A stretch of DNA of 36,243 nucleotides from Ectocarpus siliculosus (lineage: Eukaryota > Sar > Phaeophyceae > Ectocarpales > Ectocarpaceae), in the NCBI GenBank assembly GCA_000310025.1, contig FN649746.1:1779791-1816033 (forward strand). The letters are read 5' to 3'. The position numbers and the translations under genes were made by a program. Every line of letters starts with the position of its first letter. Position 1 is the first letter of the stretch. The notes below the pieces were generated by a model. That model ran no database searches. It was not told where the DNA came from and was given only the letters and a program-made list of their open reading frames with translations. Below are positions 21-30,434 of this stretch, in pieces.

Positions 21-626
21 GTACTCATAGTCGTGCATGCCGTAGTCGTTTGACCATTGACCTCGCATCCCTGCAAAGCCGGGACGGAGCACGCCGGGTT
101 CTCACCGGACCAGGCTCTCACATCACCAAGCGCGAAGCGCCGTGAGGTATTTGGCGAGTCGCATGAAGGGTGAGCTGCATCCTGCTAAGGGTGTTCGGCA
201 TCTTGTGCTTTCTTCCTTGCGTACGGATGACAGCTACGTATGACTTAATTTATTTTCTAATGCTTTCACTTCCAGAGACAGTTGTTAGCACTGTGTAACT
301 GCCTCGAGGATGCTTAGCCATTTTAACACAACGTGGTACGATCATCCCCCGTTGCGCGGAGTGAGGTTTCTCGACCCCGCACAACATGATCTACTCGACC
401 ACCATTATGGTTACCGCCAAAAAAAAAACCGAGGTAAAAAAAAAAAAGCGGTAACCTGGTTGCCGAGTTCACGAAGTGAATTGGCTTGTTTTTCGACGTC
501 GTTGCCAAGCGACGAAAACCCAATCCCGATGGCAAACACCGGGGGGGGCGGCTTGTTTTACAACGTCGTTGCCAAGCGACGAAAACCCAACCCCGATGGC
601 AAACACCGAGGGAGGGAGGTATATAC
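21..626. repeat. Large direct repeat, copy 1 (period 618 bp)
   Basis: The stretch beginning GTACTCATAGTCGTGCATGC recurs 618 bases downstream with only scattered substitutions and small indels. The unit holds, in order, a G-run, about 400 bp of unique-looking sequence, an A-rich stretch (two A-runs near 420-450) and two copies of a 66-67 bp minisatellite. I see no coding exon in it; the short open frames are low complexity and shift frame between the two copies. It looks like a satellite or tandemly amplified non-coding unit that probably continues upstream of the window. Confidence 0.85.
498..620. repeat. Nested 67-bp minisatellite in copy 1
   Basis: Two units share the core GTTGCCAAGCGACGAAAACC followed by a CCCGATGGCAAACACC block and a G-run. 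The period is 67 bp. On the minus strand this gives a repeated short peptide, but the 67-bp period breaks the frame, so I do not treat it as coding. Confidence 0.8.
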
Positions 627-638
627 GGGGGGGGGGGC

Positions 639-1232
639 GTACTCATCGACGTGCATGCCGTAGTCGTTTGACCATTGACCTCGCATCCCTACAAAGCCGG
701 GACGGAGCACGCCGGGTTCTCACCGGACCAGGCTCTCACATCACCAAGCGCGAAGCGCCGTGAGGTATTCGGCGAGTCGCATGAAGGGTGCGCTGCATCC
801 TGCTAAGGGTGTTCGGCATCTTGTGGTTACTTCCTTGCGTACGGATGACAGCTACGTATGACTTAATTTATTTTCTGGTGCTTTCACTTCCAGAGACAGT
901 TGTAAGCACTGTGTAACTGCCTCAAGGGTGCTTGACCATTTTAACACAACGTGGTACGATCGTCCCCCTTGCACGGAGTGAAGGTTCTCCACTCCGCACA
1001 ACACGACCTACTCGACTACCAATATGGTGACGACAAAAAGAAAAGCAGAGGAAAAAAAAACAGTATCCTGGTTGCCGAGTTCACGAAGTGAATTGGCTTG
1101 GTTTACAACGTCGTTGCCAAGCGACGAAAACCCAACCCCGATGGCAAACACCGAGGGGGGGGCTTGTTTTGCAACGTCGTCGCCAAGCGACGAAAACCCA
1201 ACCCCGATGGCAAACACCGGGGGGGGGAGGCT
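639..1232. repeat. Large direct repeat, copy 2 (period 618 bp)
   Basis: Second copy of the unit at 21-626. It keeps the same order of landmarks: G-run, the AAGCGCGAAGCGCCGTGAGG block, an A-rich stretch, two 66-bp minisatellite units and a terminal G-run at about 1210-1228. Similarity stops just after that G-run, where unique sequence begins, so this is the right edge of the array. Confidence 0.85.
1110..1228. repeat. Nested 66-bp minisatellite in copy 2
   Basis: Two units of the same minisatellite as at 498-620, here with a 66-bp period. This keeps one minus-strand frame open across both units (peptide core FAIGVGFSSLG). The frame conservation most likely follows from the unit length alone. 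Confidence 0.8.
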
Positions 1233-2755
1233 GAAAGTCTCTTCACACCGGCGTACACAAGTTGCGATTTGATGCTGACGCTGATCGCCACGCTTCCCGC
1301 CGACACAATGTATCCGACGAGCTATAATAGTGGTTCGACTTGCGATAGAGTCAATGAAACAGCAACGGAAGAGCTGCGACAGTAGATAACCACAGAATCC
1401 ACCCGGGGAATACGGAGCGGCGAACGGAGAAAAGGGGAGTTATGTAGGTAACTGGATTGTGGTATCGCCGGCATGTGGTTTTAGTCTCGCTGGTTTGGCA
1501 TTCTTCGCTTTGGCCTTGTGCGTTCTCGACATCCATCCACCAATTACATGCGACCTATGGAGGCCTTGTGTGTTTGGTGTCTGATTTGGAGGTGGATCGA
1601 TCATTCATATATTTGATCCCGACGTCATGAGACAGGACATGTCATGATTTTGTTTTTGATGCGTCGGGGCTGTTCGCTCTAATTGAGGCGGCTTATGAAT
1701 TTCAGGAGAATATTCTTGAGGGCTTGGGTGGGGATTGTTCTGGCCAAGGTTTGCACGTTTAAGAACAGGTCATTCGCGGCGTTTTCGGTTGAAGAAACGA
1801 CAGCAGTGACACATTTGCTACATAGAAAAATAATTTTCTATTTTGCTCTACGTTATTTTTGTTAGTTGGAAAACATTTTTCACAAAAATACGCTTCGACG
1901 CCGTCTGTGCCCGTCATGTGCGTTATGCATGTTTCGCTCTCGGAACACTAACTCGTGTCCTCTACGATGAATGAGTTCCCACCCCGTACGCGTTTGTTGG
2001 AGATTGTGTGCAGCGCCCCGGTACGCGCACCGGGAGCTTTTCACACGTTGGCAACCGCCGGGATCCATGCTATGGATATGCAGCTTGAGGCAAAACAACA
2101 TGATGATACTGCGAACACGTCCCTCGTTTCTTGTTTTTTTTTTCAGTCAGTGTTTGCGTGGTGCTTCTCACAGAGGAGCAGCTGGAACTTCTCTGTAGCA
2201 TCCAGCAATCGATGTCATCCTACAATAGATCATCTACTAAACTGTGAGTAAATGCATTCAAAGGCTACATTCCGAAGCGGTGTTTCTATACAGGGTGACG
2301 ACGACGTGATGCAGTCCCGGTCGTCGATTGCCTCCATCAAAACGCGACCTATGTTTCATTTTTCGGCCTCCCGCTGACTCTGTGTCGCTCACCCTGTGGA
2401 ACTACAGTACTCCATCCAAGACGTTGTTGTGCTGCTATTTTCCGGTCGTGGTCTCATTTATGGGTTCCCTGTTTTGCGGAATGTTCTGCTAGCGGTTCGA
2501 ATGAATATCTCGTGGCACGGCAGCACCGTGTTACGACCGCTACATACCGACATGCCTCCAATGAATTGCGGTTTCGATTCAAATTATGCGGAGACCCGGC
2601 GTTAGTGGCACGGCGGTGCCAAGGGTGCCGGGGGAGCTCACGGTTGCAGTGAAAAGGCTCAGCAAATGACGGCGACGGGGACCGCGTGGTGTTGACGCAC
2701 CTTTGTTGGTGTTATTAAGCAACCCGCCACCCCTTCAGCCGTCGCAGCGAGCGGC
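1233..2755. other. Region without a recognisable gene
   Basis: This 1.5-kb stretch right of the repeat array holds only short open frames of mixed composition. I find no exon with good splice borders, no RNA gene and no strong repeat. It could contain the distal promoter of the sulfurtransferase gene or part of an unrecognised gene. Confidence 0.5.
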
Positions 2756-6300: not shown

Positions 6301-7782
6301 GAAGTAGTCGGCTGTTGTACATTCATGTTGCCTCGAAGTGTGCGTACATGTGTTTACGTGCCACTGCCGTTTCGTGGCTGTGTTCTCTACTCATGCTCGG
6401 CTTTTGCCCTTTCAACTGCGTTAGCGTGGAGCGAGGCGAGGTGAAACCAGTGAGCACGCGGCCGTCTTCCGGCCTGGTACAAACGTCCGGCAACGCGTGG
6501 ATGTTGAGGTCCAAGGGCTTCCAGGGACGACTGAACGCACCCATGCTAAGAACCTGGCGACAGGTATACCCGGGCGGGTGCTTCGCGGGCGAAACGCGCA
6601 GGACTCTGAACTGCCCCTTCCGCACCTTGCGCTAGGATATTCGCAGATACCTTGGGTAGTTACAGCGGCGGCTTTTATCGATCAGCCAGCACCACATCCA
6701 CAGCCGCCGAACCCCACGATACCGAGACTCCGGGCGTGTTTGATATCGCATCAGGTTCTCAGCCAGAGCGAGAAGGGCAAGGAGGCCGCCGGGCAGGTGG
6801 TAGACGCTCGATCCCTCGCGAGGTTCAAGGCTGAGGCGCCAGAGCCGAGGGCTGGGGTTGCAGGGGGCCACGTCCCTGGGTCGGCGTGTGTGCCGTTCGC
6901 CAAGGTTTTGGTGGATGGAGACGTTAACAGGTGACAAAGAAGTTTGTGGTTAAACGGGACTGTGCAACTTTTGTGTAGTTGCAAATTGGCTGCGTGCCAC
7001 CCCCATCGACGTCAATTTCGTTGCTGATATCGTACTCTCGACATCAGCATGCACCATCGGAAGCACAGAAATACGAATTGATATATACCGCCGCTCGAGG
7101 AAGCCAATAGATGTTTGCCTCGGTCCCCCATCCATTGCAGGATTTTGTGTTGGAAATCGAACACGTGAGATATGTATGGACCCGATGGTAGAGTCATGTT
7201 GACTTCATAAGAGGTTGCTTGGTCCAACGGTCGGGAACGCCAAACGCCCCCCTTTTCTCTTTCCCCACGGCAACAGAGATGCGGGGTTGCCCACTAGTCG
7301 CTGTCTGGCCTAAAATGTCACGCCCTTCACATAGCTGAAAAGGGCACCAGCGAAGAATGCGTTTGCACGTTCGTTCGCCACATGTACGTAACACGCTCAT
7401 CGCTCATGTGTAGTGTTTGTACCTTGCGTCACCACAGCTCTGTCGCGAAATGCCTATGCTCGTCAGCCGCACTTCTCTCATGTTCTCTCTCCCACCTCGC
7501 CCACCCCCACTGATGAATTGAACTTTTTATTTTGAAACGCAACCACTCTACAGCTTTCGATCTCCCAAAGAGATCCGGAAGGCTTTCGAAGACGCGGGCG
7601 TCGACGTCGACTCTCCCCTCCCCATCACCACGACGTGCGGATCTGGTGTTACGGCGGCGGTGCTCACATTAGCGCTCGAGCTGGCGGGCAGAAAAGCGGA
7701 ACTTTCCCCTGTTTACGACGGGTCATGGTCGGAGTGGGGTTCTCGTGCCGATCTCCCAAAGTCCGTCGGCACTGATCCATGA
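3247..7782 (+). CDS. MPST: 3-mercaptopyruvate sulfurtransferase (two rhodanese domains), six exons
   Basis: Predicted to transfer sulfur from 3-mercaptopyruvate (the cysteine transamination product) to thiols or cyanide through a cysteine persulfide. Exons: 3247-3447, 5350-5519, 5684-5875, 6425-6563, 6755-6930, 7554-7782, all phase-compatible, giving 368 residues, normal for the family plus a presequence. Residues 1-47 look like an organelle presequence (Arg-rich, no acids) ending in 13 serines; the mature part begins at PLVTTQE. The N-terminal non-catalytic rhodanese domain shows SIRCVDASWHL, GHLPGAVFFDID, SAPRCWWTFRAFGH and VLNGGFPAW. The C-terminal domain shows QVVDARS, the PEPRAG...GGHVPG signature and the active loop CGSGVTA with catalytic Cys321; this CGSGVTA loop is typical of mercaptopyruvate, not thiosulfate, enzymes. 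It ends DGSWSEWGSR...DP-stop. Intron 1 (1.9 kb) contains a fold-back element. Mitochondrial targeting is inferred. Met48, after the serine run, could start a shorter cytosolic form. Confidence 0.93.
3346..3384 (+). repeat. (AGC)13 coding microsatellite, poly-Ser
   Basis: Thirteen consecutive AGC codons in exon 1 of the sulfurtransferase encode Ser34-Ser46, between the basic presequence and Met48. Pure trinucleotide runs like this usually vary in length between individuals. Here length changes would alter only the linker before the enzyme domain. Confidence 0.95.
4206..4567. repeat. 362-bp fold-back (inverted repeat) element in sulfurtransferase intron 1
   Basis: The outer 67 bases (4206-4272) are nearly the exact reverse complement of 4502-4567. 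Pairing continues inward less perfectly, then resumes strongly between about 4334-4363 and 4423-4450 (the GTCTTGTACTGCTTG block). This leaves a loop of about 59 nt (4364-4422). The two arms of about 155 and 145 nt make nearly the whole element self-complementary. I see no open transposase and no clear target-site duplication. It fits a MITE-like or fold-back element, or an inverted duplication able to make a long RNA hairpin from the intron. Confidence 0.88.
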
Positions 7783-15433: not shown

Positions 15434-18400
15434 CTAGCTCTTCGTTTCAGCATTGAGCATGGCCAGCTTCGAAGGCGTACACGGTCGCCGCTGCTTCGGA
15501 ACAGAGAATAAATCATAGAAATGGGCGGGAAAAAACTGCCGCACTTGCATGTGCGTCTCAGAGAGGTCAACTGAAAAGCTGGCCGGGTCTTGGGGTACAG
15601 TGCGCGTGCCAGTCCATCTCTACGCCACTACATACAGAGCAAACACGAGCTGGGAGTTTTCGGGACGTCACCTTGCTTCAGTGGCCCATGTGCTCCGAGT
15701 GGTTTCTCTTCGGCAAGGAATTGATGACGACCGACCTCGAGAGCATGAAGACCCATAGGGGTGTTTCCAGCTGTGGTCCTCTCGGCGAAAGACTCGGCGT
15801 ATCGACTGGGATAAGCTACAGTAGTGCTGCATTTCTATGGCAATAGACAGGCGTGGAATAGGCGTAGCTGTGAACGTTTCTAAGTTGGACACATTATTAT
15901 GGAGACTCATCAACGGTCCCGCGAGAGGTCGAGCCTAGGCGGTTGCACTCTTCACCTGGCCACCGCGCTCTCCCGGTGCTTCTGAAGCTTTTGCTGCAAC
16001 TCAACTCCTTCGCCCAGCCATGCGTTCTCCAGCTTGGTCGTAGAGCTAGCTCCGGGACCCGGCCCAAAGTACGACTCTAGGCTCTTCAGCGTCGACGCGA
16101 GCTTCTCCACCCTTCATGCAGTGGAAAATACCGGAGCGTCATGAGCGAAAGCAGGACGTCGGTCGTCATCCCCTGTTTGAAAAAAAATGGCACTAGGAAA
16201 TAGGACTCTGCGGCAACATTTTCCTTTCATCAAAACCCGAGCGAGCGCTGGATCCCCCCAAACCGGACTTCGGCGACCCCAGAATCGCCACACACCACCT
16301 TGCCGGATGGAAACTCAAAACCTCCGATGAAATACGCATCTTGTACGTACCTGTCTCTGGCAGCCTGCCGCTGATCCTCGTGCTGGAGGGTCAGAACCCT
16401 GACAACTTCCCTCGCAGCCACAACGTCCTCCTCCGCCTGCCGCCCCTGCTCCAGCAGGTCTTGGGCCTGTCGGCGCCAGTGCTCGCTGACCGCTTGAGAC
16501 ACGCTGCTTGTTGTTGATTCGAGGGCGCCAAGGGTCGGTTGATCGTGGAGACAGAAACGGTAAAGCCTTTCAGGTGGTAGGTCAACAGGATTTAAGGAAG
16601 AGGTTGTCCTCGTCACTCTCACTGCATTGTTGTTGCACTTGTGCTTGGATTGATGTTAAACATTCCTATCCCTGCTAGAGAGAGACTGTATCTGGAGGGC
16701 AAACTGCCCTTCATAACAGTGAGGGACGTATGTAAGGCATTTCTTGCAAGCGTGGAGGGGTGGGCATTACTTTGTATCATTCGTCGAAACGGCTAGACCT
16801 CCCGCCACTGCCACGTGTGTGTCGTCGACAGCTTATTTTACACAGGAAACACCGCGCCGAGATGCCTCACCTCTCGACGTAATCCCGGCACTCCGCCCGA
16901 GTGGCTTCCACGGCGCTATCCGTCTTCCGCTTCTTGATGCGCTTGGTCCGCGCCTGCGAAGCCGCCACCAGCTGCTTGTAGATTTGAGCTGAGAGAGATA
17001 GAAAGCGGTGATAATATCATCCATGACGTTTTGGTCAGGCGAGGTACTTGGCAACCATCCTGCTACTTTCCTACAGGAGTTATTTCGTCCATCGGTTCGA
17101 GTTTTCTGGGAGAATGCTCTTAACCAGAAACGGGACCCAAAGCAAGGCAATCTAGTCATCCATTGGAAAGAGAACGCCCAACACACCAGAACTCAAAGCT
17201 ACGACATAGTTTCACGACCCCATTTGCGTTGCTATAGTCAAAGCGTCACGTTTCTGAAAATACAGGAAATGTACCCCTTTTTTTCCAGTTGAAATGTACC
17301 CCTCTAGACCGTTCGATCAAGTTCAGGTCAGTCCCTCCGACATCTTCCCAAGTGCAATTTTCCCCTGTGGGTCTTCGAGTGTCCAAACCTCGAAAGCACG
17401 GTCATCCTTACCCAGGATCAACGAATCCTCTTCTCCACCATCCTCGTCTTCGCCCCCCTCTACCGCCTCCTCGATGTCGTCTTCCTCGAGATTGTAGTCG
17501 TTGTCGCTGTTGCTGTTGCCATGGTCTCCATCCCTACCACTCTTTCCCTCCTGCTCCTCTCCTTCCTCCTGGTTCTCATAGCCCTCATCTCCAAGCTGCT
17601 GCTGCTGCTGCTGCTGTCGGGCTCGCCTATCCGTCTTCGCTGGGACAGCTCCCTGCCTACCTCTGGTAGGGGCAGCACCACCGCCGCTGGTGCTGCGCTC
17701 GGTAAGTTCTTCGTCCGAGCAATCGCTCGTTGGGCTGGCTGCCTCGTCGAGTTCCTCGCTTCCGTCCTTGTCGCTCTCCGCACCTCCCTAGAGATGTTTC
17801 ATAATATTTTATTGCGTTCAACATGTTTTTCCTCCTGCAAGTGGTGCTTGATTGCGGGCCGTCGTTCCGTTTGCGTTGGTTCGACAACGTTTTGCTGTGC
17901 TCCAACCACAACATTTGTTATCATCACGAGTCGTTCGTTTGATTCCTACGTGTTCATTGTCGGAAGGCACCGAACAAATACAAGTGAGAACCGATCACCG
18001 GTGTCGCGTCCCTCCTCTTTCTCTCATGATTGCGAGCATATCCACGATCTTCGGGAACTACCCACTGCACCCACTAAAGACACGGGCTCCTCGGGTATTG
18101 GCACTACCTCTTCCGTCTTGCCCAACTGCTGCGAAGATCGAAAACGTTTATTACGGCTCCCTCCAGTGAGATGTTTACTATGAGGAAATCAACGGGGCAC
18201 TTGTGCCTGGTTCAAAATATGATGATACGTCTCGGATCATCAACGCACCCTAACGGATGTTTGACAGCAACAACGTGAAGGTCAACAACAACAACAAGCA
18301 CAACGACAACAGCGACAGCAACAGCAGTAGCAACAGCAACAGCAACAGCACAACAGCCACAATTATGATCCCCGTCGCCTCCACACCACATCTCCCCACC

Positions 18401-21400
18401 TCGTCCTCCTCGACGTACTCGGCGTCGTTGTCGTTGTCACCGCCGTCTTCGTCCCCACCGAAAGAGAAGAAGGATTGCTGGCTGAGACTCCCGACACTGC
18501 CCGCAGCCTCGCCAACCTGAACATGGGCTCTGAGTTTCCTCTGCTCCGAGCTCTTCTCCGCTCTATCCTCTTCTCTAGAACCTGTGGCTGCAGCAGGAAC
18601 CGTGGTCTGGTGCGAGGAGCCTTTGCGACCGCCGGCATTGCCGTGGGGGCGCTGCCGATTGCTGGCGCTCGATTCTGTCAAATGCGTTGGAGGGAGGGGG
18701 GGGCGGTCGCCGCCGTTTGTTTTCGGGGCTCTGGCCTTGTAAGCAAAAAAGAGGACATGAGCATTTTATATTATTGCCGTCCCGGCGCTCCGGTGGTACA
18801 GTTGGTAACTTCGAAAACCACCTGGCTCTAGTTTGTGAGTTCGCAATAGTGGAACATAAACCAGGGAAGCGGCTGCTGAAAACTTGTCGATCGCTTTGGA
18901 GGAGCCTCGTTTTCACGTTGTCAACAACAAAGTTTGTACTTGTACCCTTGATGACATAGAGCGGACACAAACTAACCCGAGGGTCGTGCGGAGTGTCGAG
19001 GGGGAGTAGGGTCCGAAGTGGAGCAGGCAGAACGGACACTTTCCCGCATAGTTCCACGTGTGCCGTCACACCCAAAGGACTACGGCGAGTTGAGGCAACG
19101 GGTGCCAGCGCAGGTAATGTGAGGCAACGGCACGAGTTAAAAAAACGTTGATATCCCATGCAGGGTAGGAGAGTACCTGCATCAGAATCGGACGACGACG
19201 AGGACGATGACGACGGTGACGGCGGAGGGGATAGCGCCTTCAGTGCCCTCGAAGCGGCCTCCCTCCTCGACGGCCTGTTTCTGCCACCTCGAGCGGCACC
19301 GACGTTGAGGCTGTCACCTCCTCCTCCTCCTCCCTTGCCTTTGCTCCCACTAACACTGCCGCCGATGCGGCCGCTACCGCTGGAACTCCCGCTTCCTCCT
19401 TCACCATCACTGCGGCCTTCTGCCGAAGCAACAACGACTGATAGGGTGGAAATCCCGAGCTCTTCGCCCTGCTTGGAAGACGACGCATGTTGCTTCTGGT
19501 CCTCGTCTAACCCCCAAAGGCGACGGTGGCGGCCCCCTTTGGCAGAAGCGGCGGCGATCTCCTCGACGGTCGCCGACGCAATCGATGACCCCCCGCCGGC
19601 GACCTTGGTGCCGCTGCTTCGCGCACCCCCCCGCCGCCTGGAGACAGAGGCGGGGGGAGACGGGGTGTTTTTGCTGCCGCTAAGGACACTGCTTCCGGGC
19701 CCGGGTCCTGCACCGCCTGCATGAATCAAGTGCATGTGTTGACAGTGGGAGGTAGCTTGGGGAAAGAAGAACCGGTGTGTTCAGGTACACACGACAATCT
19801 CGGGAGTCATTAAACAACCCCTGGAAGCTGCAAGTGTGGGGAAAATGTAAGGAGCTGTTCAGATGATCATTTCGCTCTCTGAACGGAAGCAATCATTTAT
19901 GTTACGCCGATTCAACGTCTGCTATTCTGATGACCAGTCCATAACGATCGAGTATATGGGCCCATTGAGCGAAAAATATGCTGCCGACCATGGGCTATGC
20001 TGCCCACACAGACACAGAGACAGCTGCTTCCACCTGCTTTCGCTGCCCTCGGCTTGGCTTTGGCCTTGCTCCTGGGCGTCACTTCCTCAAGGCGGTGGCG
20101 CCCGGCACTGCCCTTCTCACAATGACCTTCGTCACCGCCGTCGTCTTCGCTGATATCCCACTCGGTGCTCCCACCCCGGAGGGACGATCCGCCATCTCCC
20201 TTGGCCGCCCGCACTTTGCCAGAGCCGTCCCTGTTTCTGGATCCTGTCTTGGTACGCGCCTGCTTGTCCTCCGTTAGAACGTGCAGGAGGAAATGTGTCA
20301 TGTTTCCTAAAGCGGCGAGATTGTTCGTGGCGGCATCCGCAGGGAAACGATGCATCCTGCGGGACACCATGTTCTCCTAAACCGCCTCACAATATCATGC
20401 CCTGAGCGGGATGGCGTCTACTGTAGAACTGACCCCTTAGTCGTCAGCTCTGCAGCAATTCCCCTAACCGTGCCTACCTTCCGTTTGGCCGTGGCTGATG
20501 CTGGAGCGAGATCGAGGTGCCGGCGGGGAGCCATCCAGGAGTCCCCGCCGTCATCATCACGGGCGGCCGTGGCGTCGGCGTCGTCGGAAAAACTCCTGGA
20601 GCTCCCTTCCGAGCTTTCCCTGGCCTGAAGGCTTGAGTCATGAGCCGTCACGGCGGCGCCCTGGGCGATCCTCCTGAAGGAACCGGCCGCCTGCCGACAC
20701 GTGTCGTGGCGTTGTTAGACCACCCGAAGCGAAAAGAAAGTCAGAGAAACTGATGTCGAGCGAACAAGGCATGCTTCATGAATGCACGTGGAGGACTGAA
20801 TCGGCGGGGAAGAGTTTCGAGGATGCGAATGGAAGTTGTTAGGGTACGTGGGATCTGGGGAAGAGATATGTGCCCGTTGTAGGTGTGCAGAACAAGGAGG
20901 GGTGGTGCAATAGTCATCTCACCATGTCTCCTTCGAAACATGGATATGTAGCCCCGTTCCTGCTGGGAAACGAGGCGCCAATGCCAAAACATCACCAAAA
21001 ATTTTCGTACAACCGTTTTACGTTGCGGTTCATTGGCATTGAGTGAAAATCACACGGCATTTACGGCTTCGTTTCTCGCCCCCAAAGTAATGATCCTGGG
21101 GGGCGAGACTGGTTGGGGTCGGGAAAAGACCCAAACGCACTACAAATTTCATGCCCCACTCCCTGACAGAACGAGTGCCTCGTTGCTCGGCCCCATCCAT
21201 ACGTCTTACCCAACCGCGAAAGACCATAGCCCACAATACACTCATCCACGTTTTTCTACTTCTCTCTCATGTACTTCTGCCGAACAGCGCCAAAAAAGCG
21301 TGCGCACAACTCACCCATACAAGTGTACATATTGCCTCGACGACAAAGGAGTACCCCTACATCTGGAACCGTGTCTGTCCTTGGAAGTGGCCGCCCTCCG

Positions 21401-21769
21401 TACACAAGAGCCTCCCGACGAACTACCACCATTACCCTCCCGGTTGTCGGTGGTGGGGCGTGAAATGGAACTCCCCCGTCATTAAACCAAACTCCGCTCT
21501 TACAGGCGCCTAGAGGGTGGAGGACTTGGGGAGATACTGTCGAAGACGCAGCCACGACCCGCGTCGCCTGAAAAGCCGTCATCTTCCGTGGCCATGCTCT
21601 CACCGGGGTCGGTACCTCGCCTTTCGCGTGGTCCGTGATCCGCTTCTTTTCCGCAGAAGACGCTGTGCTTGTGTTCACCCTTGCTGCCGCCGCCGGGGCC
21701 GAGACGGGTGAATCTGTTGGCGTATTGAGCGGCGCCCTGTGCGCCCTCTTTGCCTGTGTGACCGGCCAT
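15434..21769 (-). CDS. Large disordered, acidic protein with C-terminal coiled coil
   Basis: No family recognised. Probable first exon starts at ATG 21769 (MAGHTGKEGAQGAAQ) in a CCGCCATGGCC context; its splice to the next exon is unresolved. Phase-consistent exons follow: 20690-20478, 20376-20034, 19716-19177, 18674-18400, 17787-17412, 16988-16871, 16506 (or 16566)-16351, 16111-15956, 15778-15672, 15570-15434 (TAG), about 806 residues plus the first exon. Order of features: Ser/Asp-rich disorder; a short hydrophobic segment (NNLAALGNMTHFLLHVL); Gly/Ser-rich disorder with an eight-Ser run; an acidic block (EYVEEDE); a Q7 tract and second acidic block (LEEDDIEEAVEGGEDEDGGE); a basic nuclear-signal-like KRIKKRK; then a coiled coil (EHWRRQAQDLLEQGRQAEED, QQKLQKHRESAVA). 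Composition suggests a nuclear scaffold or chromatin protein, an inference from composition only. The last exon could instead be skipped into the downstream locus. Confidence 0.6.
17595..17615. repeat. (CTG)7, coding poly-Gln in the acidic exon
   Basis: Seven CTG triplets on the plus strand read as seven CAG (Gln) codons on the minus strand, inside exon 17787-17412 of the disordered protein, between an Arg-rich and an acidic stretch. Confidence 0.85.
18264..18357. repeat. Imperfect AAC/AGC microsatellite in an intron
   Basis: A purine-rich run of AAC and AGC triplets just past the donor of exon 18674-18400 (minus strand). On the minus strand the open frame carries on through it as a Leu-rich stretch, which is a composition effect, not coding. 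Confidence 0.8.
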
Positions 21770-21905
21770 GGCGGAGACAGAGCGGGGTAGAAGGGCGAGA
21801 GAGAGGAGAAGAAGAGATCGAGTCAGAAAGTGCGGAGGGAAGGAGGGGGGCGAAGAGGAGAGGGGTTGTGGAGAAGAGCACGAGAGAGAGATTGACAAAG
21901 AAAGG
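21770..21905 (-). promoter_or_regulatory. Pyrimidine-rich leader/core promoter of the disordered-protein gene
   Basis: On the minus strand the 135 bases before ATG 21769 are almost entirely C and T (many CTCTCT and TTCTTCTCC blocks). This differs from the surrounding sequence, and a run of this kind ending at the start codon suggests a TATA-less start region or 5' leader. No TATA box is visible. The assignment depends on 21769 being the true start. Confidence 0.4.
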
Positions 21906-22413
21906 GACAATCCTAAAGCAACGAATAACTTCGTGCGTGTATGCGTGCACGACGCAAATAAATACTCACGCGGGGCGGGTTGTGGGCACTAATCCAAATG
22001 ACCTACTGCAGGATCCTCCCATGGCAACGTCTCAAAGTACAGGTGTCAGCTCTTGACTGACTCGTGGCCTTTAGATTCAAGAAGATCACGCGCACATAGA
22101 CAAGCGGCCCGTGTCAAAACTAGGGTCGGAGCAGTTTCTAACGTGAAACCTCTTGGCAGCAAGAACTGGTTCGCATATGATGTTAGTCGTGTGAACAGGG
22201 ATGGGACTATTTGAAATTGTGGTTCGTCGAGAACCCCATTCCTCCGCACGATCAGTTCCACCCGGAACGCGTAGAGGTAAGGTTCCAAGTGCTGAATGCC
22301 GTTGAAAAATTCCTCCTACGTAGACGCGCCGTTGCTTATCGGGGAAAAGGTGCAATATATTCCGACCCCAGTTCTCTGGAACAAAGGGCGTTAAACCGTT
22401 TTTTGGTACGTTC
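21906..22413. other. Intergenic region between the SYCP2-like and disordered-protein genes
   Basis: About 500 bp between the TGA stop of the SYCP2-like gene (22414) and the pyrimidine-rich leader of the next gene in the same orientation. I see no exon or RNA gene; it should contain the 3' end of one gene and the promoter of the next. Confidence 0.45.
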
Positions 22414-25400
22414 TCAGAACGTAAAGAACGAGGGCACGACGGGTGTCAACGATGGAAGTACCGGACAACTTTTGATCACCCTATACATCCTGATGACGGC
22501 AACACCCCGAGTAGTTGAACGCCATCGCCTATATGTTCTACAAGAAACATGGCCATGCAAAGAGTCGCCAGCATCGTCGACCGGTTCCCGCAGCAACGCC
22601 GGAAAGGTTCTAAGTCTGTCGTCGATGAAACGCTGTTCGGCCCGCCTGGCTTTGGCTGTTGTCGTCGTTGTTGTTGTTGTTGTACTGCTGCTGCTGCTGC
22701 TGGTCCCCGCCAAAATAATCGTTTCTAGCCTCTGTTCATCCAGCGCAGCCATCGTGCTCAGTATCGATACCAACCAGTGTAGCGACGAACTTTTCCCCTG
22801 AACAGTACCGTCCAACTCGTAGCCCTCGCCCGATACTCGAAAGGGAAACCAACCACGCGCGTGCCATCAGAACACCACTATGGTTAGCTACTTTTGCCTA
22901 CCTTGCGACCCGAGCTAGCCTTCTCCCTCGAGGCGGTTTGGTCTTCCCCTCCCCGGTCGCTATCCCTGCGCCCGTCCTTCCGGGGCGTGATGCGAGACTT
23001 GTCGTTCAAACGAGACGGAACATCGGAAGGCATGGTCACTCCGCTGTGCTTCGACGTGGAGCGAGCTTTTTTCTAGTTTGAATGCCGGGCCTGGGTGGAC
23101 AGAATATTTTGTGAGACTGTTTAGCGGTGCTGGTTCGACGAGAGATAAAAGCCAAAGCATTGTTTATGTGGGTCGCAAGCATAAAAAGTCCTCCAGGCTA
23201 ATTAGACACTGTACATAAGGGCAAACTAAAGTGTGACAAGCATGTGTGGGAATGGCAGTGGTAGCCACGATGCAAGTGGGGTGGATCAAAATGCATTTAG
23301 GGGTTGGTACGCGTATGCGTATTGGCGGGGGGTGGGCTCGGTATGCTCCGTCAACATGGCAAGCGCAGCAGAGAACAACGTGTTGGCCGTGTGCCGAACA
23401 ATATCCACCTTTTACGAATGCAACACGATTCAAATCACAAGCGATGAGTGCGAGGAGGAAGGGTGTTGCCGCGTCTCGAACCGCCTCATGAAACAGTGAG
23501 GGGTTGAAAATCCCTGTGACTGCTGGCGGTTGGCACAAAAAGGGGAATGGCACGAAAATAGGCAAGGGTTGGGCCCGTCAGCCGAGGTCGCCACGAGCGG
23601 GAACGAGTCGAGAGCGTATTCTCCCCACACGCAGCGTCTCACCCGGTTGCTCACAGAGCCGGCCAAGCCACATACGGCCCTAGGTCGCTTCCTGTGGTTC
23701 GTCTGCGTCCCCTCTTCGTCGTCATCGTCGAGGTCCTCTTCAACGCCCTCGGCTCCTTCCAACTCATCGGAAGGCTTGAAAACCTCCGCGTGTTCCAGGG
23801 CCGAGGAACCCTTGGTTGACTTGGAACCCCTGCTAGGCTTGGCCTCCTTGGCCACATCGGGAACCTTGGATTTCAAAGCAGCGATGGCCTTGAAACCGCG
23901 CGGAGGAAAGGATAACGGGGGCGAGGGCGGTAGTTGGGGGGGCTGAAGTAACGGGGGCTGTGGTTTTGGAACGATACCTGCGATTCCCCGTGGTGAATCA
24001 GTGAGACATCGAGGTTCCCCTTCGCTTGAATCAGCATAAAACCCAATAGCCTTCAGGGAAGGCGGAAATAAGCACTCTTGCAACTGCGGAAAATCCAAGC
24101 TCGAATCTAAGAAAGGACTGCGACAGGTGCGGCTAATCCTTCGGCAAATCCGTGGAAAGTATTCCTGCGATTGCCTTTGATCCCACCACATTCTCGAGAG
24201 GGTGAAGGAGCGCGAGGCTGGTATTCTCGCTCGGTGTCCTGTCGAGGGAAACGCTCGCATCTCTACAAACCTGCGGCGTGGGTGTGTTCCGTTTTCGCTC
24301 GACTGGGCGCCAACCTCACGCCGCGAACGCCTCGACTTGGTTGTTAAACACCTAAAGCAAGACCCCCTACGTTGTCCATAACGTTCCCACGCCCAAGCAC
24401 CGCTGTTCAGCGGCCAAAAGCACCCCTTGCCCAAGTATCTCATCCAACCGCGACGGTTTGCGTGCCCCCCGCAGGAGTGGTGAATCACCTGTCTGAACCG
24501 GCTGAACATTTGTGAGCCACCCTCCAGCTGAATAATGATCGTGCAGTTCGCGGTTGCCGCATTCTCTTCTGGGGGGGTGCGGACCAGTCTTGCCAGGGCT
24601 GGACACTATTCAGGGGTGGGAGGGTGGGAGGGTAGGTGATGCCGTTATTACGAGTGCCGTTGTGTGATGTGTGTGTGTCCGTGTTGTTGTTGTTGTAACT
24701 GTTGTAGGCGTTGTCGTGGTTGCTGTTGCTGGTATTGTTGATAGTGACAAGGATGGTGCAATGGTTGGTAGCGGCAGCGGTGGGTTCGAAGTCGTAGACC
24801 ACATCATCTGAAAATATGCCCCAGTTTGGCATGGGATCTGGAGAACGAACGAATTCCGAAATTTCGAAACGCGCATGCTCTTGGTCTTTACCGAATTTTC
24901 TTGGCGTCACCACCTACGCGAAACTCGAACAAAATTACTCAACAGCCGAGCGGCTGTTCCATTCTGTCCAGCTAGAGAGCAAAAATAATTAGGTATTTTC
25001 TTCCACACAGTAAGGCAGAGTACAGCAACAGTTCACAAGAAATTTCGTAGTACGAGGAAAGATACGTGATGACCGTGAGAAACTTTCGGCCAATCACCGA
25101 CGCGCTTCGAGCAATCGATTTGAATTTGCACCAGATATTGTTGCAGATACGTATTGCCAAGGAGAACATGTGGCAGGTTGAGGAAGTAGCGGGGCTTGTA
25201 GATAGTCCGCAGAAAAATACAGGGCGCAAAACGCGCTGTCTCGAAGGGGAACCGCAGGAAACAAGACGGGGGGGGGCAATAAGAGGTGGCGGCGTATCGT
25301 TACTCTTGAGCAGCAAAGGACGTGGTTGTTCCTGCTGATGCTGATGGTAGTGTTGTTGCGGATGTTGCGGGTGTTGTTGTTGGTGGTGGTGGCGGTGGCG

Positions 25401-25490: not shown

Positions 25491-28400
25491 TTCCCCTGGT
25501 TTGATGGCATTACCTCGGACAGGGAGACGTCCACCTGTAGCGACCTAGCCCCCACCAGCACCTTGCTCGCCGCGGCTACTGTTTCTGCCGGGATGCTGAT
25601 GAATACGCCACCTCCTCCTGTCGATGTTCCGCTGGTTTTCCCCGGGGATGCCTTTGGGTAGACCTGTACAGCCATGAAAAAAACATTCGGATGAAAAATG
25701 AGGCAAAGTTGGACCATGAATAGACGCACTCGTCAAGGAAGCACCAACCCAGAAGCAATACCGTGAACGACAGCGATAGCAGGAGCAACACCGATGACGA
25801 CAACAATAAAAAACTTCCAAGCCGTGCTGTTCTACTGTTTGTGTATGTATGTTGGTTGTTCGACCGGGGGATAAAGAAAAACAGACGAAAGGTGCGACCC
25901 CCCGCCTCCGGAAGATCAGCACTAACTATCTTCTAAACGATTTGGCGCAGAAACATGCAAGGATTTCGTCCCGCAAGAGCTGTCAATATCTGTCATGGGC
26001 TCCACGCCTTGGAAAACGAATAATCTTTGGCTCATTTCAACTTGCCCTCACGCCCCCGTCTCTCCCAACTGAGGAGCTACAAGAGTCACAGATGGAACAC
26101 CTTCTGCTGTGCACCCTGCACAAGGAATATCCTAACGTGGGGGAAGAATGCCAATCCAATAGGTCGACGGAAAATTGCACGGGATGCGTTTTCAGGAGTG
26201 AATCCGCCGCCCCCCCCGACATCGTAACTCTTCCTGCCAGGGTGTAGAAGAGGCCAGAGAGGCCGAGAAAATCGCCTCCTTGAGGTTTCGTGCCGGGGTT
26301 GCGCGCCGTATGGTCTGACAACTACTGCCCTCCTGAGAGGGACATGGCCGACCGAGTCTACGCCCGCGTAGCCAATCGCGCGTCCCGATACACTGGCAAA
26401 CCACCCAACGGGCACTCGATTAACTGTTCGTGTTGTGTTGCCCGCGGGTGAACGTGCAAGAACTGGGTCTGCTGGTACGTCGGTATGTTCGGAAGGGGAG
26501 AGGGGCGGGGGAAGCACGCCCATGTACAGTGTCGGGCACATGGTGTGAAGCAAGGTCATACCTGGATGCTAATGGAGTCACCCCCTATGTCGAGGTGGTG
26601 TGCCTCTCCGAGGCGGTCACGCAGCCCTAGCCCTCGCCACTCGGTCACCTGTGCGACGAACGAATAACATTGGGTAATGATGCATGATGTGAGAGACCGC
26701 CGAAACCTCCTCGGGTCCCCTCTGAAGTACATATTTGAGTGGTCTGGAATTAACTGAAGAACCTTCGCGGATGTTCGGCAAAACAAAGCGGGTCGAATGA
26801 GAATCACTCGGGATCCTCGAGTGGATGGCAAGCACTTGGGACCTACCTGCACGGGCAAAAACAAGGCCGTGTGTTTCGAAGGTTTCATTCAGAAACGGCT
26901 ACAAGCCTTGTTGTGCTTGCATTCCCCCCGCTTGACAGGCTGCAACGCCAGTGTTTGTCCTACGATCGCCCTACCCGGGCTAGTGCCGACCACGACGATG
27001 CCAATCTACTCCCGGCAGGATGCCTTCCGAACGTGCCGGGCAACCCAAGCCTTCTCGTCGTCGTCCGCCAGCGGGTCGTCTACAACCGTGCCCGGAATCG
27101 AACGGGAAGCCCACATCCAGCCGACGGCCCAACCCAGGACCATGTCCCCCCGCCTCGCCCCAACCGACCCCTCCACCAATGCACATAAGCGCCAACAAGA
27201 CCTCTAGATACCTGAAGCAGGGCTTCCACTGGAAAAGACGATGGGGGGGAAAGCCAGCCCTTTTCGTCTTCTTCTGGGTCATATTCACCGTCCTCGCCAT
27301 CGTCTCCGTTGGGCCTGCTGTTGACTGCTGCAAGCATGGCGCGGGTCTGGCCTTCGAAGTCGTCGATGGTGATGGAGGAGAAGCCCTCTGCTATCTCGCG
27401 GCGGGTTGAGGGGGGAAGCTGCGGCGGCCCGCCGCGCTGCTTCTTCCACACCTTGGGGCGGATTCGTTCGGGGTTGTCGTGGGCACGTTCAACCGTAGAA
27501 CAAATCATTGTCACTTCCATATCTTCCTTTCTGACCTTGTCGGTGTTTGTGTGATTATTGCCTTTGCTGTCGCTGCTGTTGTTAACGCTTTCGTCTTCAC
27601 GGAGAGAATATCGTCTTGACCCTCTCTCCAGCATCACCTGTCGTATGCTACTCTACCCTGGCTAGAAATAAGTAACGGTATGGCCTACGAGTGGGTTCTC
27701 TGCATCCTGGGGAAGAGCGGGAATCAAAAGCTCCACGTGGAGGTGCAACCGAGGCGCCTCACATGGTGGTCCTGGAAACACCATGCAAGTGAGTAGCCCC
27801 CATATTGCCACAAAAGAGACCCCAAGACCGTCGCAACCAGTATTCCTACCAAGGACGGTAAGGGTCTCCGAAGGCTGGAAAGCCAGTCAAAGCTATCTAC
27901 CACTTTCGGAAAAACGAGGAGCACAATCACAAGCACATATACGCGATGCAGTAGGCTTGCCTTCCACAGGCGATAGAGAGCTTCGAAGACTAATTCTTGC
28001 GTGCGGTGGTCAGCGATCGAAGCCAGCATCGAAGCCGGCTTGAGGAAGCCCTGAAGGAGCGTCTTGCTGGATCGAACTTCCTTCGCGAGCTCCTTCCACA
28101 GGCCTGGCGAGCTCTGGCCCCGTTTCGACCGGGGGCAACGGTTCACGACGGGGAGAGAGAAATGGGAGCATGGCGACAACTATAACAGCAACAATGGCAT
28201 CTACGTGGTTTCTGCCGTGAGGAAAAAGTTCGTGAGCGCGCAGATGCAAATACGACACCAGCACAACGGGACTTAGTATAACAGTTGAGAGGGCGGGTGC
28301 GACATTCGTGCGCTGCACGAGCAACAACACCCAAATCATTCAGCTGCAACGGAACTCACGTCGCAAAACGCCACTAGGGCAGACCCCGCCGCTCTCTGGG

Positions 28401-30434
28401 CCCCGGATCCCGCCTTGTTGTCCTGCACAATGCCCACAAGGGCAAGCAGTAACGCCGGCCGCCGAAGGCCTCGGTGCAGCTCCGCGCTTGCCGTGTCGGG
28501 TAGATCTGCTTAACGGTTTGAGATTGGCGACGGGCCGGCACCCAGAAAAGACGGGAGAGCGGGGGGAAGACTGCCAGGACTGACTTCTGTTTTTTCTCGC
28601 GGTGCCGTTGTGTTCTTCATTAAGCGATGCTCGTGTTGTCAGCCCCTTCATTATTGCTCAGGGTGTCAGAGCTAAGGCGTCGAGCACTCCCATGCGTGCG
28701 GTGCACTTCCTCGCTCGCTTTCTCTCTCGTTCCCATTCATTTTTCGGAGCGGGTGCCGCGTGGGTTGAAGTGGGACAATCGAACAAACACATCCGGAGGT
28801 TGTGGCAGGAGATATGATATTGTTTAGGGGATGGCCCCGACTGCCCTTGGTATCTGCACACCACTGACCAGTCTGAAGGACCTTCGAAACGCACAGTCCC
28901 GCCGCTCGAAGAAGGCGTTTCTTGGCGGAGAAGTCAAGGTTGCTACCCCGGCTAGCGGTGGCGGTGCGGAGCTTGCCAAGTGCTCGGGCCAGGCCGGAAG
29001 CGAAAGCGCCGACGCTCTCTTGGGGATCGCCAGCGAGGAGACGATCCTGGACAATCTGGCGACATTATTGTTGTAGGCACTGTAGAAAATTAGGGGCTCA
29101 CGGGCTCACCGTCGTACGGGTTCACTTTCTCAGGGGCTCACCCATATGACAGGGATAAAGTCCTGGCACCACGGGGGAAAGAATGGGTACGTTGACGAAA
29201 ACCCGCTTGTAGCAAAGCAGACAGACGTTGACAAAGCAATCGTACGTGGCAAGGCTGGCGGAGAACGATCGTAGCGAGCCAATGTTGTGAAACAAGAAGT
29301 GAAACGCTGGCGGCGGCCTCTGAAGTGTGTTGAGCTTTCGAGGGCCGGTAGAGGCCATTCGCCGTGAAATCATAAGGAACGCAACAAGTCGTCCTAGCTG
29401 CTCGGTCGCATGCGCGACCGCCAAATAGTCACCCAGCATACGGTCCTGATTCTCATCAAGATCTGTCAGCGTCATGAAAGCAGTTCCCTGGTGCAATGAT
29501 CTTCTACAGGAATAATGAAGAGAATATTCAAGTGTTCCTCGTGATTATGCTTCGCTGCCCTGATACGCTATTGTACTCCTGCCACGCATAAGGTTACAGA
29601 AATACCTCCCAACGCAAAATTGAAAGTACGCAGCCCAAACGTGCGTTGAATGGTATCTGCAGCAGTCGGCTTTCGTCCCATGTGGTACACCCACGATTAT
29701 GGCATGCTCTCCTGCCATGATACACATTTATGCCCACGCAATCGGGTCAGATGAGAATACACCTGGACTGTCCGGGTCGCTGTCTGCACCTCGTTCGGGG
29801 GACGAAAGTAGGAGACGATCCACGCAACGTTGTTCATGCATTGCAGGCTCATATGCATGTATTCCGAGTGAAATTCCCCTTGGGGGATTAAACTCCGGGA
29901 TGGAAGAGTGAAAACTGCTGTCTTGTGAAAAAAAATAGTGAAACTGAAAAACGGTGAGATGTATGTACGTCATATCATGTGTTTCCAACTGCTAGTGAAG
30001 ACACGTTTTTCCGTGCCAGATAGACCGTTCTTTGCCAATGTTAACCCCGCAGGTGTGAACATCCGTACAACGTCCCCCTTCACACAGCAGCAGGAGACGG
30101 ACACGGACCACACGAAAGAGGGGACATGGACAACAACAGTGAGAAGACGGCCAAACACAGCAAATTGTCGGATTTCAAAATTGTTCGTCGCTCAAGTCAA
30201 CCTCCGCCCCTGTCTCCCTCTCTCCCTCTGCGTCGCCCGCATCGTCATCGTGTACGCACCCGGAGCACCCCCGCAGACTTGGATGAGCATATAGCCTGTA
30301 CCAGTGCTGGCGTGACCTCGTCGCCGGAGCAGCATCTCGTCAAGAGGTGAACATCACCGCTGGAGAACAAGTTCATCAGGCGCGCCGGTGCGGAAACGGT
30401 CTTCTTGTGCCGAAATACACGCACACCAAGGAGC
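22414..30434 (-). CDS. SYCP2-like meiotic chromosome-axis protein (candidate), first exon unresolved
   Basis: Candidate homolog of the synaptonemal complex lateral-element protein SYCP2. Exons in order: 30434-30260, 29487-29191, 29055-28869, 28508-28360, 28113-27943, 27637-27212, 26648-26562, 25663-25514, 24913-24521, 23888-23676, 23072-22902, 22797-22414 (TGA); all junctions close in phase, about 933 residues. Exons 1-5 are helical-repeat-like. Against animal SYCP2 recalled from memory, DHRTQELVFEALYRL fits DYELQVGIVEALCRM, and FSSITIDDFEGQTRAMLAAVN fits, gap-free, a SYCP2 stretch sharing F..I....FE...R..L..VN. After an acidic insert come SSFPVEALLQ, LDIGGDSISIQV and FISIPAETV, in the order of the SYCP2 Spt16M-like domain. 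The C-terminal part is disordered: Asn-rich, acidic (EEDLDDDDEEG), a nuclear signal spliced from RKRPRA/KKAR, then Ser/Thr tracts. Exons 1-2 and the donor at 24521 are least certain. Another armadillo-like protein remains possible. Confidence 0.6.
22657..22702. repeat. GTT/CTG trinucleotide tract, coding Ser/Thr run
   Basis: On the minus strand this reads as six Ser codons followed by about nine Thr codons in the last exon of the SYCP2-like gene, between LETIILAG and the basic AKARRAEQR stretch. The frame and the acceptor at 22797 support it being translated. Confidence 0.75.
24670..24745. repeat. GTT-rich tract, coding Asn-rich segment
   Basis: On the minus strand the imperfect AAC repeats encode an Asn/Thr-rich segment (YNSYNNNNTDTHTSHN) inside exon 24913-24521 of the SYCP2-like gene. 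The frame stays open across the whole exon, so the tract appears tolerated in the disordered part of the protein. Confidence 0.7.
25371..25483. repeat. (GGT)n(GCT)n compound microsatellite, intronic
   Basis: A long pure run of GGT/GTT triplets followed by about twelve GCT/CTG triplets, lying about 30 bp past the donor of exon 25663-25514 on the minus strand. The strongest microsatellite in the window. The minus-strand frame stays open across it (Ser, then Thr runs), but the GTAATG donor upstream and the good acceptor at 24913 place it in an intron. Confidence 0.9.

What the first reader, a model, noticed from the sequence alone, without database searches (positions are those of the whole stretch)
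26562..30434. Candidate SYCP2-like meiotic axis gene in an alga
Hand-joined minus-strand exons give helical repeats followed by short blocks in the order of animal SYCP2: DHRTQELVFEALYRL, then FSSITIDDFEGQTRAMLAAVN (gap-free match to an F..I....FE...R..L..VN stretch), SSFP, LDIGGDSISIQV and FISIPAETV. Each exon joins the next in phase, although the frames were chosen before the resemblance was noticed. The comparison is to SYCP2 recalled from memory, so it is suggestive, not proven. If right, it extends this axis-protein architecture to stramenopiles.
Basis: partly seen in the sequence, partly recalled or inferred. Interest (0 to 1): 0.85.

Follow-up and report, generated by a model that had tools for sequence, protein, structure and literature searches.

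The report
Brown algal RED1/SYCP2-type meiotic axis gene

Summary
The quoted exons are present and can be joined in phase. Exons E+F align without gaps over 83 residues to mouse SYCP2 (PDB 5iwz) at the ARM/PH junction; 0 of 1000 shuffles reach that score, junction choice included. The earlier ARM exons and the PH blocks (SSFP, LDIGGDSISIQV, FISIPAETV) do not beat chance. Pfam and PDB sequence searches did not find SYCP2.

The gene appears longer than reported: one in-phase chain can run to about 15,956, through a low-complexity linker with a C-G-L-A motif to a putative coiled coil.

G000 holds both primers of a published Ectocarpus male sex marker exactly, and a HOP1 gene with published closure-motif residues. 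So it is Ectocarpus or a close relative, where ecRED1 (Ec-22_001630: ARM, PH, coiled coil, closure motifs) was characterised in 2025 (PMC12678776), after a 2021 survey of the family (PMC8131943). The window gene is very probably ecRED1; I could not compare the two sequences, and no structure was predicted.

The parts
30260..30434 (-). Exon A: start of the ARM-like helical region as far as resolved; the first exon with the start codon was not found
   Evidence: Open frame between acceptor and donor, in phase with C; no convincing first exon upstream
28869..29055 (-). Exon C: ARM-like helices
   Evidence: In phase between A and D; codon score 0.134, though an antisense frame scores 0.179; chain search takes it with acceptor at 29046
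28360..28505 (-). Exon D: ARM-like helices
   Evidence: In phase; codon score 0.23; chosen by the chain search
27961..28113 (-). Exon E: last ARM helices, ...DHRTQELVFEALYRLWK, with GC donor
   Evidence: In phase; part of the significant block; not chosen by the chain search
27212..27442 (-). Exon F (acceptor provisional): FSSITIDDFEGQTRAMLAAVN, acidic insert, SSFPVEALLQ
   Evidence: Part of the significant block; the chain search takes only parts of it
26562..26648 (-). Exon H: putative PH strands, LDIGGDSISIQ
   Evidence: In phase; codon score 0.164; chosen by the chain search
25514..25663 (-). Exon I: putative PH strands, FISIPAETV
   Evidence: In phase; codon score 0.003; taken in part, 25595-25514, by the chain search
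24521..24913 (-). Exon J (end 24521 or 24489): putative last PH strands, then low-complexity stretch
   Evidence: In phase; codon score -0.30; fixed as start, not chosen
23643..23977 (-). Exon K (acceptor uncertain, 23888 in the chain search): linker with NHRKRPRAVCGLAGSVSNR
23661..23672 (-). C-G-L-A, candidate core of the closure motif CM-R-A
   Evidence: C[SG]LA occurs twice in six frames of the window, once in frame with this gene; the full [KR]C[SG]LA[KR] does not occur. Expected 0.008 per modelled J-to-end chain
17412..23072 (-). Provisional linker exons: 23072-22902, 21753-21604, 20690-20478, 20376-20034, 19716-19288, 18674-18400, 18128-18066, 17787-17412
   Evidence: Chain search from J, two of three penalty settings; the third differs in several of them
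16871..16988 (-). Coiled-coil exon 1
   Evidence: chosen and in all three settings; codon score 0.341
16351..16503 (-). Coiled-coil exon 2 (acceptor 16503 or 16485)
   Evidence: codon score 0.298, though an antisense frame scores 0.28
15956..16111 (-). Coiled-coil exon 3; the end of the gene beyond it is unresolved
   Evidence: codon score 0.194

Best explanation
The minus strand from about 30.4 kb to about 16.0 kb is the RED1 gene (SYCP2-type meiotic axis core) of an Ectocarpus brown alga, most likely the published ecRED1, Ec-22_001630. Shown here: exons that can be joined in one phase, one significant alignment block to mouse SYCP2 at the ARM/PH junction, no close second copy in the assembly, a C-G-L-A motif in the linker, a charged helix-like region at the end, and in the same genome a HORMA gene followed by the published closure-motif residues. 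Inferred from published work on ecRED1 and its relatives: the ARM-PH end is a binding platform, the linker holds a closure motif gripped by the HORMA domain of HOP1, the coiled coil self-assembles (modelled as a tetramer for ecRED1), and the complex organises chromosome loops and loads HOP1 to control meiotic double-strand breaks and the checkpoint.
For: E+F against mouse SYCP2: 0 of 1000 shuffles, junction choice included. Whole 406-residue chain, local: BLOSUM62 0 of 300, BLOSUM45 14/2 0 of 300. Chain search keeps one phase from A to the coiled-coil exons and from J to them in three of three settings. 8 matches of the ARM-PH chain in G000 all lie in the window; the ninth has E 0.228. G000 carries both primers of the male Ectocarpus marker 68_56_ex02 exactly, 100 bases apart end to end and facing each other. 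HORMA matches at C18 (E 4.9e-8), and about 6 kb further on the same strand RRMMMTMGTKRVL, which fits the spacing of all seven ecHOP1 CM-H1-A residues named in the paper, and RRCSLAT. Published ecRED1: ARM, PH, CC, closure motifs, sporophyte expression.
Against: No Pfam match, SYCP2 not found in the PDB by phmmer, hhalign only 2.7% probability, E 0.017. First ARM exons and PH part no better than shuffles. Two of four end-free global alignments at chance (132 and 124 of 300); the other two 0 and 2 of 300. Best of 29 E. coli targets reaches 51 against 57 for SYCP2 with BLOSUM62, though only 64 against 87 with BLOSUM45. The coiled-coil periodicity is weak (151 of 2000). The full published motif [KR]C[SG]LA[KR] is not in the window. 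In my provisional model the coiled coil begins near residue 1299, in ecRED1 at 1075. Identity with Ec-22_001630 was not checked letter by letter.
Confidence: 0.87

Rival explanations
1. Another armadillo- or HEAT-repeat protein; the SYCP2-like block is a local coincidence or a generic repeat feature, and the coiled-coil exons belong to a separate gene.
For: Only one block is significant; neither the other ARM exons nor the PH part beat shuffles. No family match. Linker exons are provisional.
Against: The significant block lies at the ARM/PH junction, which PMC8131943 names (with the PH domain and a coiled coil) as the best criterion of the family. A gene of this architecture is published in the same genus. 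The chain search reaches the coiled coil in phase.
Confidence: 0.08
2. A second SYCP2-type gene of Ectocarpus, a divergent paralogue of Ec-22_001630.
For: Identity with Ec-22_001630 was not tested; the full closure motif is missing and the coiled coil starts about 220 residues later in my model. A divergent paralogue would escape.
Against: No second locus at E below 0.2 in G000. The paper names one ecRED1 (section 11).
Confidence: 0.04
3. Not a gene: chance joining of open segments in a GC-rich stretch.
For: Open segments are common here: 206 of at least 80 codons in six frames. Codon usage is near neutral for several exons. E needs a GC donor, F an ambiguous acceptor.
Against: Shuffles do not reach the E+F score; coiled-coil exons join in phase with good donors.
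Confidence: 0.01

Closest known systems
ecRED1 (Ec-22_001630), Ectocarpus, PMC12678776
   Same: Organism at genus level, order ARM, PH, linker, coiled coil, C-G-L-A core in the linker, HOP1 partner in the genome
   Different: Sequence identity not checked; full motif (K/R)C(S/G)LA(K/R) not present as such; coiled coil begins near 1299 in my provisional model against 1075 in the paper
Animal SYCP2 (mouse, PDB 5iwz)
   Different: No significant similarity in the first ARM exons or the PH domain by pairwise alignment; no match to Pfam models
SYCP2-type members of the SYCP2-3 family (Red1, Rec10, ASY3, KKT17/18), PMC8131943
   Same: ARM-PH-coiled coil topology; the paper reports orthologues in all eukaryotic supergroups (section 11)
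   Different: Its criterion (E below 0.01 over last ARM plus full PH) was not reached here with single sequences; its main text does not name Ectocarpus, stramenopiles or brown algae

Membership tests
SYCP2-type axis protein (criteria of PMC8131943) | Significant similarity (E < 0.01) to the last ARM repeats plus full PH domain | tested here: inconclusive
   Last ARM block significant (0 of 1000); PH part not (889 of 1000); hhalign E 0.017, probability 2.7%
SYCP2-type axis protein | C-terminal coiled coil | tested here: inconclusive
   Three in-phase exons; 106-residue stretch without proline, 35% charged; heptad periodicity 151 of 2000 shuffles
SYCP2-type axis protein | ARM-PH-coiled coil in one protein | tested here: inconclusive
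   One phase kept across the region by a simple chain search; no transcript data
SYCP2-type axis protein | Match to Pfam SYCP2_ARLD / SYCP2_SLD | tested here: not met
   0 families at E up to 10; 0 matches in G000 (no positive control). These models are narrow, so this lowers but does not end the claim
SYCP2-type axis protein | ARM and PH folds like 5iwz | not tested
   The spliced chain is not a letter-for-letter translation of the DNA, so I did not hand it to structure prediction
Brown algal RED1 (PMC12678776) | Closure motif (K/R)C(S/G)LA(K/R) in CM-R-A | tested here: inconclusive
   Full pattern absent; core C-G-L-A present in frame between basic residues. The HOP1 counterpart in G000, RRCSLAT, also lacks the last basic residue
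Brown algal RED1 (PMC12678776) | Sequence identity with Ec-22_001630 | not testable with these tools
   The sequence is not in the text that I could read
Brown algal RED1 (PMC12678776) | Sporophyte expression and binding to HOP1 | not testable with these tools
   Reported for ecRED1; no RNA or binding data here

The most novel reading that the evidence does not exclude
Ectocarpus has a second SYCP2-type axis protein: the window gene is a divergent paralogue of Ec-22_001630, so that a brown alga would build its meiotic axis from two different cores.
Probability: 0.04. Interest if true: 0.5.

Novelty: already known. Interest (0 to 1): 0.18.

Why it matters
It shows that a very divergent meiotic axis protein can be recognised from raw genomic sequence, and it gives a provisional exon map. 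The biological point, a SYCP2/RED1-type axis core in a stramenopile that works with HOP1, is already in print (PMC12678776, PMC8131943).

Tried and rejected
Rejected segments: the open segment 29503-29143 (its only open frame cannot follow A in phase; codon score -0.14) and segment G 26846-26763 (-0.42) were left out. Codon score alone was not the reason: exon J was kept at -0.30.

Searches without result: Pfam SYCP2_ARLD, SYCP2_SLD and Cor1 in G000; mouse SYCP2, 184 residues, against G000; PDB search with the ARM-PH chain, single hit a consensus PDZ domain at E 0.85; PDB search with the coiled coil, best E 0.24 to bacterial CpxP, taken as chance; Pfam on the modelled C-terminal part. No convincing first exon was found upstream of A, and the exon after 15956 is unresolved.

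Considered and rejected as a test: that the PH blocks match by eye in the right order; 889 of 1000 shuffles score as well.

Dropped before counts: segment 29503-29143, segment G and the part of exon J after PMPN were left out of the 406-residue chain. In one search, 29 of the 44 coding sequences listed served as unrelated targets; two cut ones and thirteen others, mostly short, were left out. In one search two of the 14 training pieces (L017, L018) were read on the wrong strand; this was corrected, so codon scores quoted carry that error. Only the forward primer of the female marker was searched. From only three open frames went on to Pfam, so the neighbouring genes are largely unannotated.
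Full report
Observation. The quoted peptides are in the window on the minus strand. Exons A (30434-30260), C (29055-28869), D (28505-28360), E (28113-27961), F (to 27212), H (26648-26562), I (25663-25514) and J (24913-24521) can be joined in phase. E needs a GC donor and F has five in-phase acceptors. Codon usage learned from chaperonin exons of the same genome is only weakly informative: C 0.134, D 0.23, H 0.164, the coiled-coil exons 0.19 to 0.34, others near zero, J -0.30. A chain search started at A, with no knowledge of SYCP2, picks A, most of C, D, parts of F, H and part of I, then linker and coiled-coil exons, in one phase. It leaves out E and J and inserts several very short exons, so it is rough.

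Is the resemblance real? A recalled human SYCP2 sequence retrieved mouse SYCP2 5iwz (724 bits), which supplied the comparison letters. E+F aligns to mouse residues 187-269 with no gap. Shuffles do not reach it: 0 of 1000 with BLOSUM62 and 0 of 1000 with BLOSUM45, junction choice included; the four other junctions are reached by 0 to 6 of 400. For the 406-residue chain, 0 of 300 shuffles reach the BLOSUM62 and both BLOSUM45 local scores, 10 of 300 the PAM250 score; of four end-free global settings two are at chance (132 and 124 of 300) and two are not (0 and 2 of 300). The first ARM exons (600, 361, 669 of 1000 under three scorings) and the PH part (889, 845, 734 of 1000) do not beat chance. 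Against 29 E. coli proteins the best scores are 51 and 64, against 57 and 87 for SYCP2 (BLOSUM62, BLOSUM45). hhalign finds the same place, 60 columns, with probability 2.7% and E 0.017. Pfam finds nothing and the PDB search only a PDZ domain at E 0.85.

The rest of the gene. Downstream lies an exon with NHRKRPRAVCGLAGSVSNR. After provisional linker exons come three exons (16988-16871, about 16503-16351, 16111-15956) that join in phase. They begin with a 106-residue charged stretch without proline; its heptad periodicity is modest (151 of 2000 shuffles; a recalled piece of SYCP3 gives 203 of 2000 at the same period, 3 of 2000 at 3.6). The modelled chain has about 1440 residues, with C-G-L-A near 616 and the coiled coil from about 1299. 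Linker boundaries change with the penalties used, and both ends of the gene are open.

What organism? G000 contains both primers of the male sex marker 68_56_ex02 printed in PMC6592573 (passages), exact, facing each other and spanning 100 bases. The forward primer of the female marker is absent. A HORMA match at C18 is followed about 6 kb on, same strand, by RRMMMTMGTKRVL, which fits the spacing of the seven CM-H1-A residues of ecHOP1 named in PMC12678776 (R583, M584, M585, M588, T590, R592, L594), and by RRCSLAT. That these belong to one gene is inferred. G000 is therefore Ectocarpus, of male type, or a very close relative. The ARM-PH chain has 9 matches in G000 at E up to 1: 8 in the window and one elsewhere at E 0.228.

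What is known. PMC8131943 (sections 8 and 11 and passages, including one of the abstract) reports SYCP2-3 family members in all eukaryotic supergroups and defines SYCP2-type by ARM-PH-coiled coil; its main text does not contain the words Ectocarpus, stramenopile or brown alga. PMC12678776 (abstract, introduction part 1, sections 7, 11, 13 and 26, methods part 1, passages) credits that survey for its candidate and describes ecRED1, Ec-22_001630: ARM, PH, coiled coil at 1075-1291, six candidate closure motifs of which only CM-R-A bound ecHOP1, the motif (K/R)C(S/G)LA(K/R) conserved in brown algae, and sporophyte-specific expression. PMC4132317 (passages) had found only Hop1 annotated for Ectocarpus. 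A search for Ec-22_0016 found only PMC12678776. The window gene fits ecRED1 in organism, domain order and motif core, not in the full motif, and the coiled-coil position differs in my provisional model. Direct identity could not be checked.

Mechanism. Mostly from the published work rather than from my calls: the coiled coil assembles the axis filament, the linker motif captures the HORMA domain of HOP1, and the ARM-PH end acts as a platform, so that HOP1 is loaded on meiotic chromosomes to guide breaks and the checkpoint. Binding of CM-R-A to ecHOP1 (60 micromolar) is measured in PMC12678776; recruitment through cohesin is a prediction there.

Verdict. It is very probably a gene already described, so interest is low. 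The most novel reading not excluded is a second, divergent axis core beside Ec-22_001630 (probability 0.04).

Noticed in passing
window 7522-7779, + strand: Open frame resembling the end of a rhodanese/sulfurtransferase (PF00581, E 0.065, 14.1 bits, below the cut-off of 22.2).
   Followed up: partly
window 25500-25320, - strand: Long CAG/CAC-type triplet tract directly after the donor of exon I.
   Followed up: no
window 289-1382, + strand: Short repeated peptide (SDENPTPMANT-like) in several frames, which suggests a short DNA repeat.
   Followed up: no
window 11703-11476, - strand: Short open frame with coiled-coil-like composition; no Pfam family at E up to 1.
   Followed up: partly
G000:C18, about 84.9-94.8 kb, - strand (L005, L007): HOP1 gene candidate: HORMA matches, then RMMMTMGTKRVL and RRCSLAT, as in ecHOP1.
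   Followed up: partly
G000:C479:614089-614280 (L003, L006): A second, weaker HORMA match (E 0.0115, below the cut-off).
   Followed up: no
G000:C38:126891-127037: A weak chaperonin match lies in an open frame listed as 6959 codons long; possibly a long repeat.
   Followed up: no
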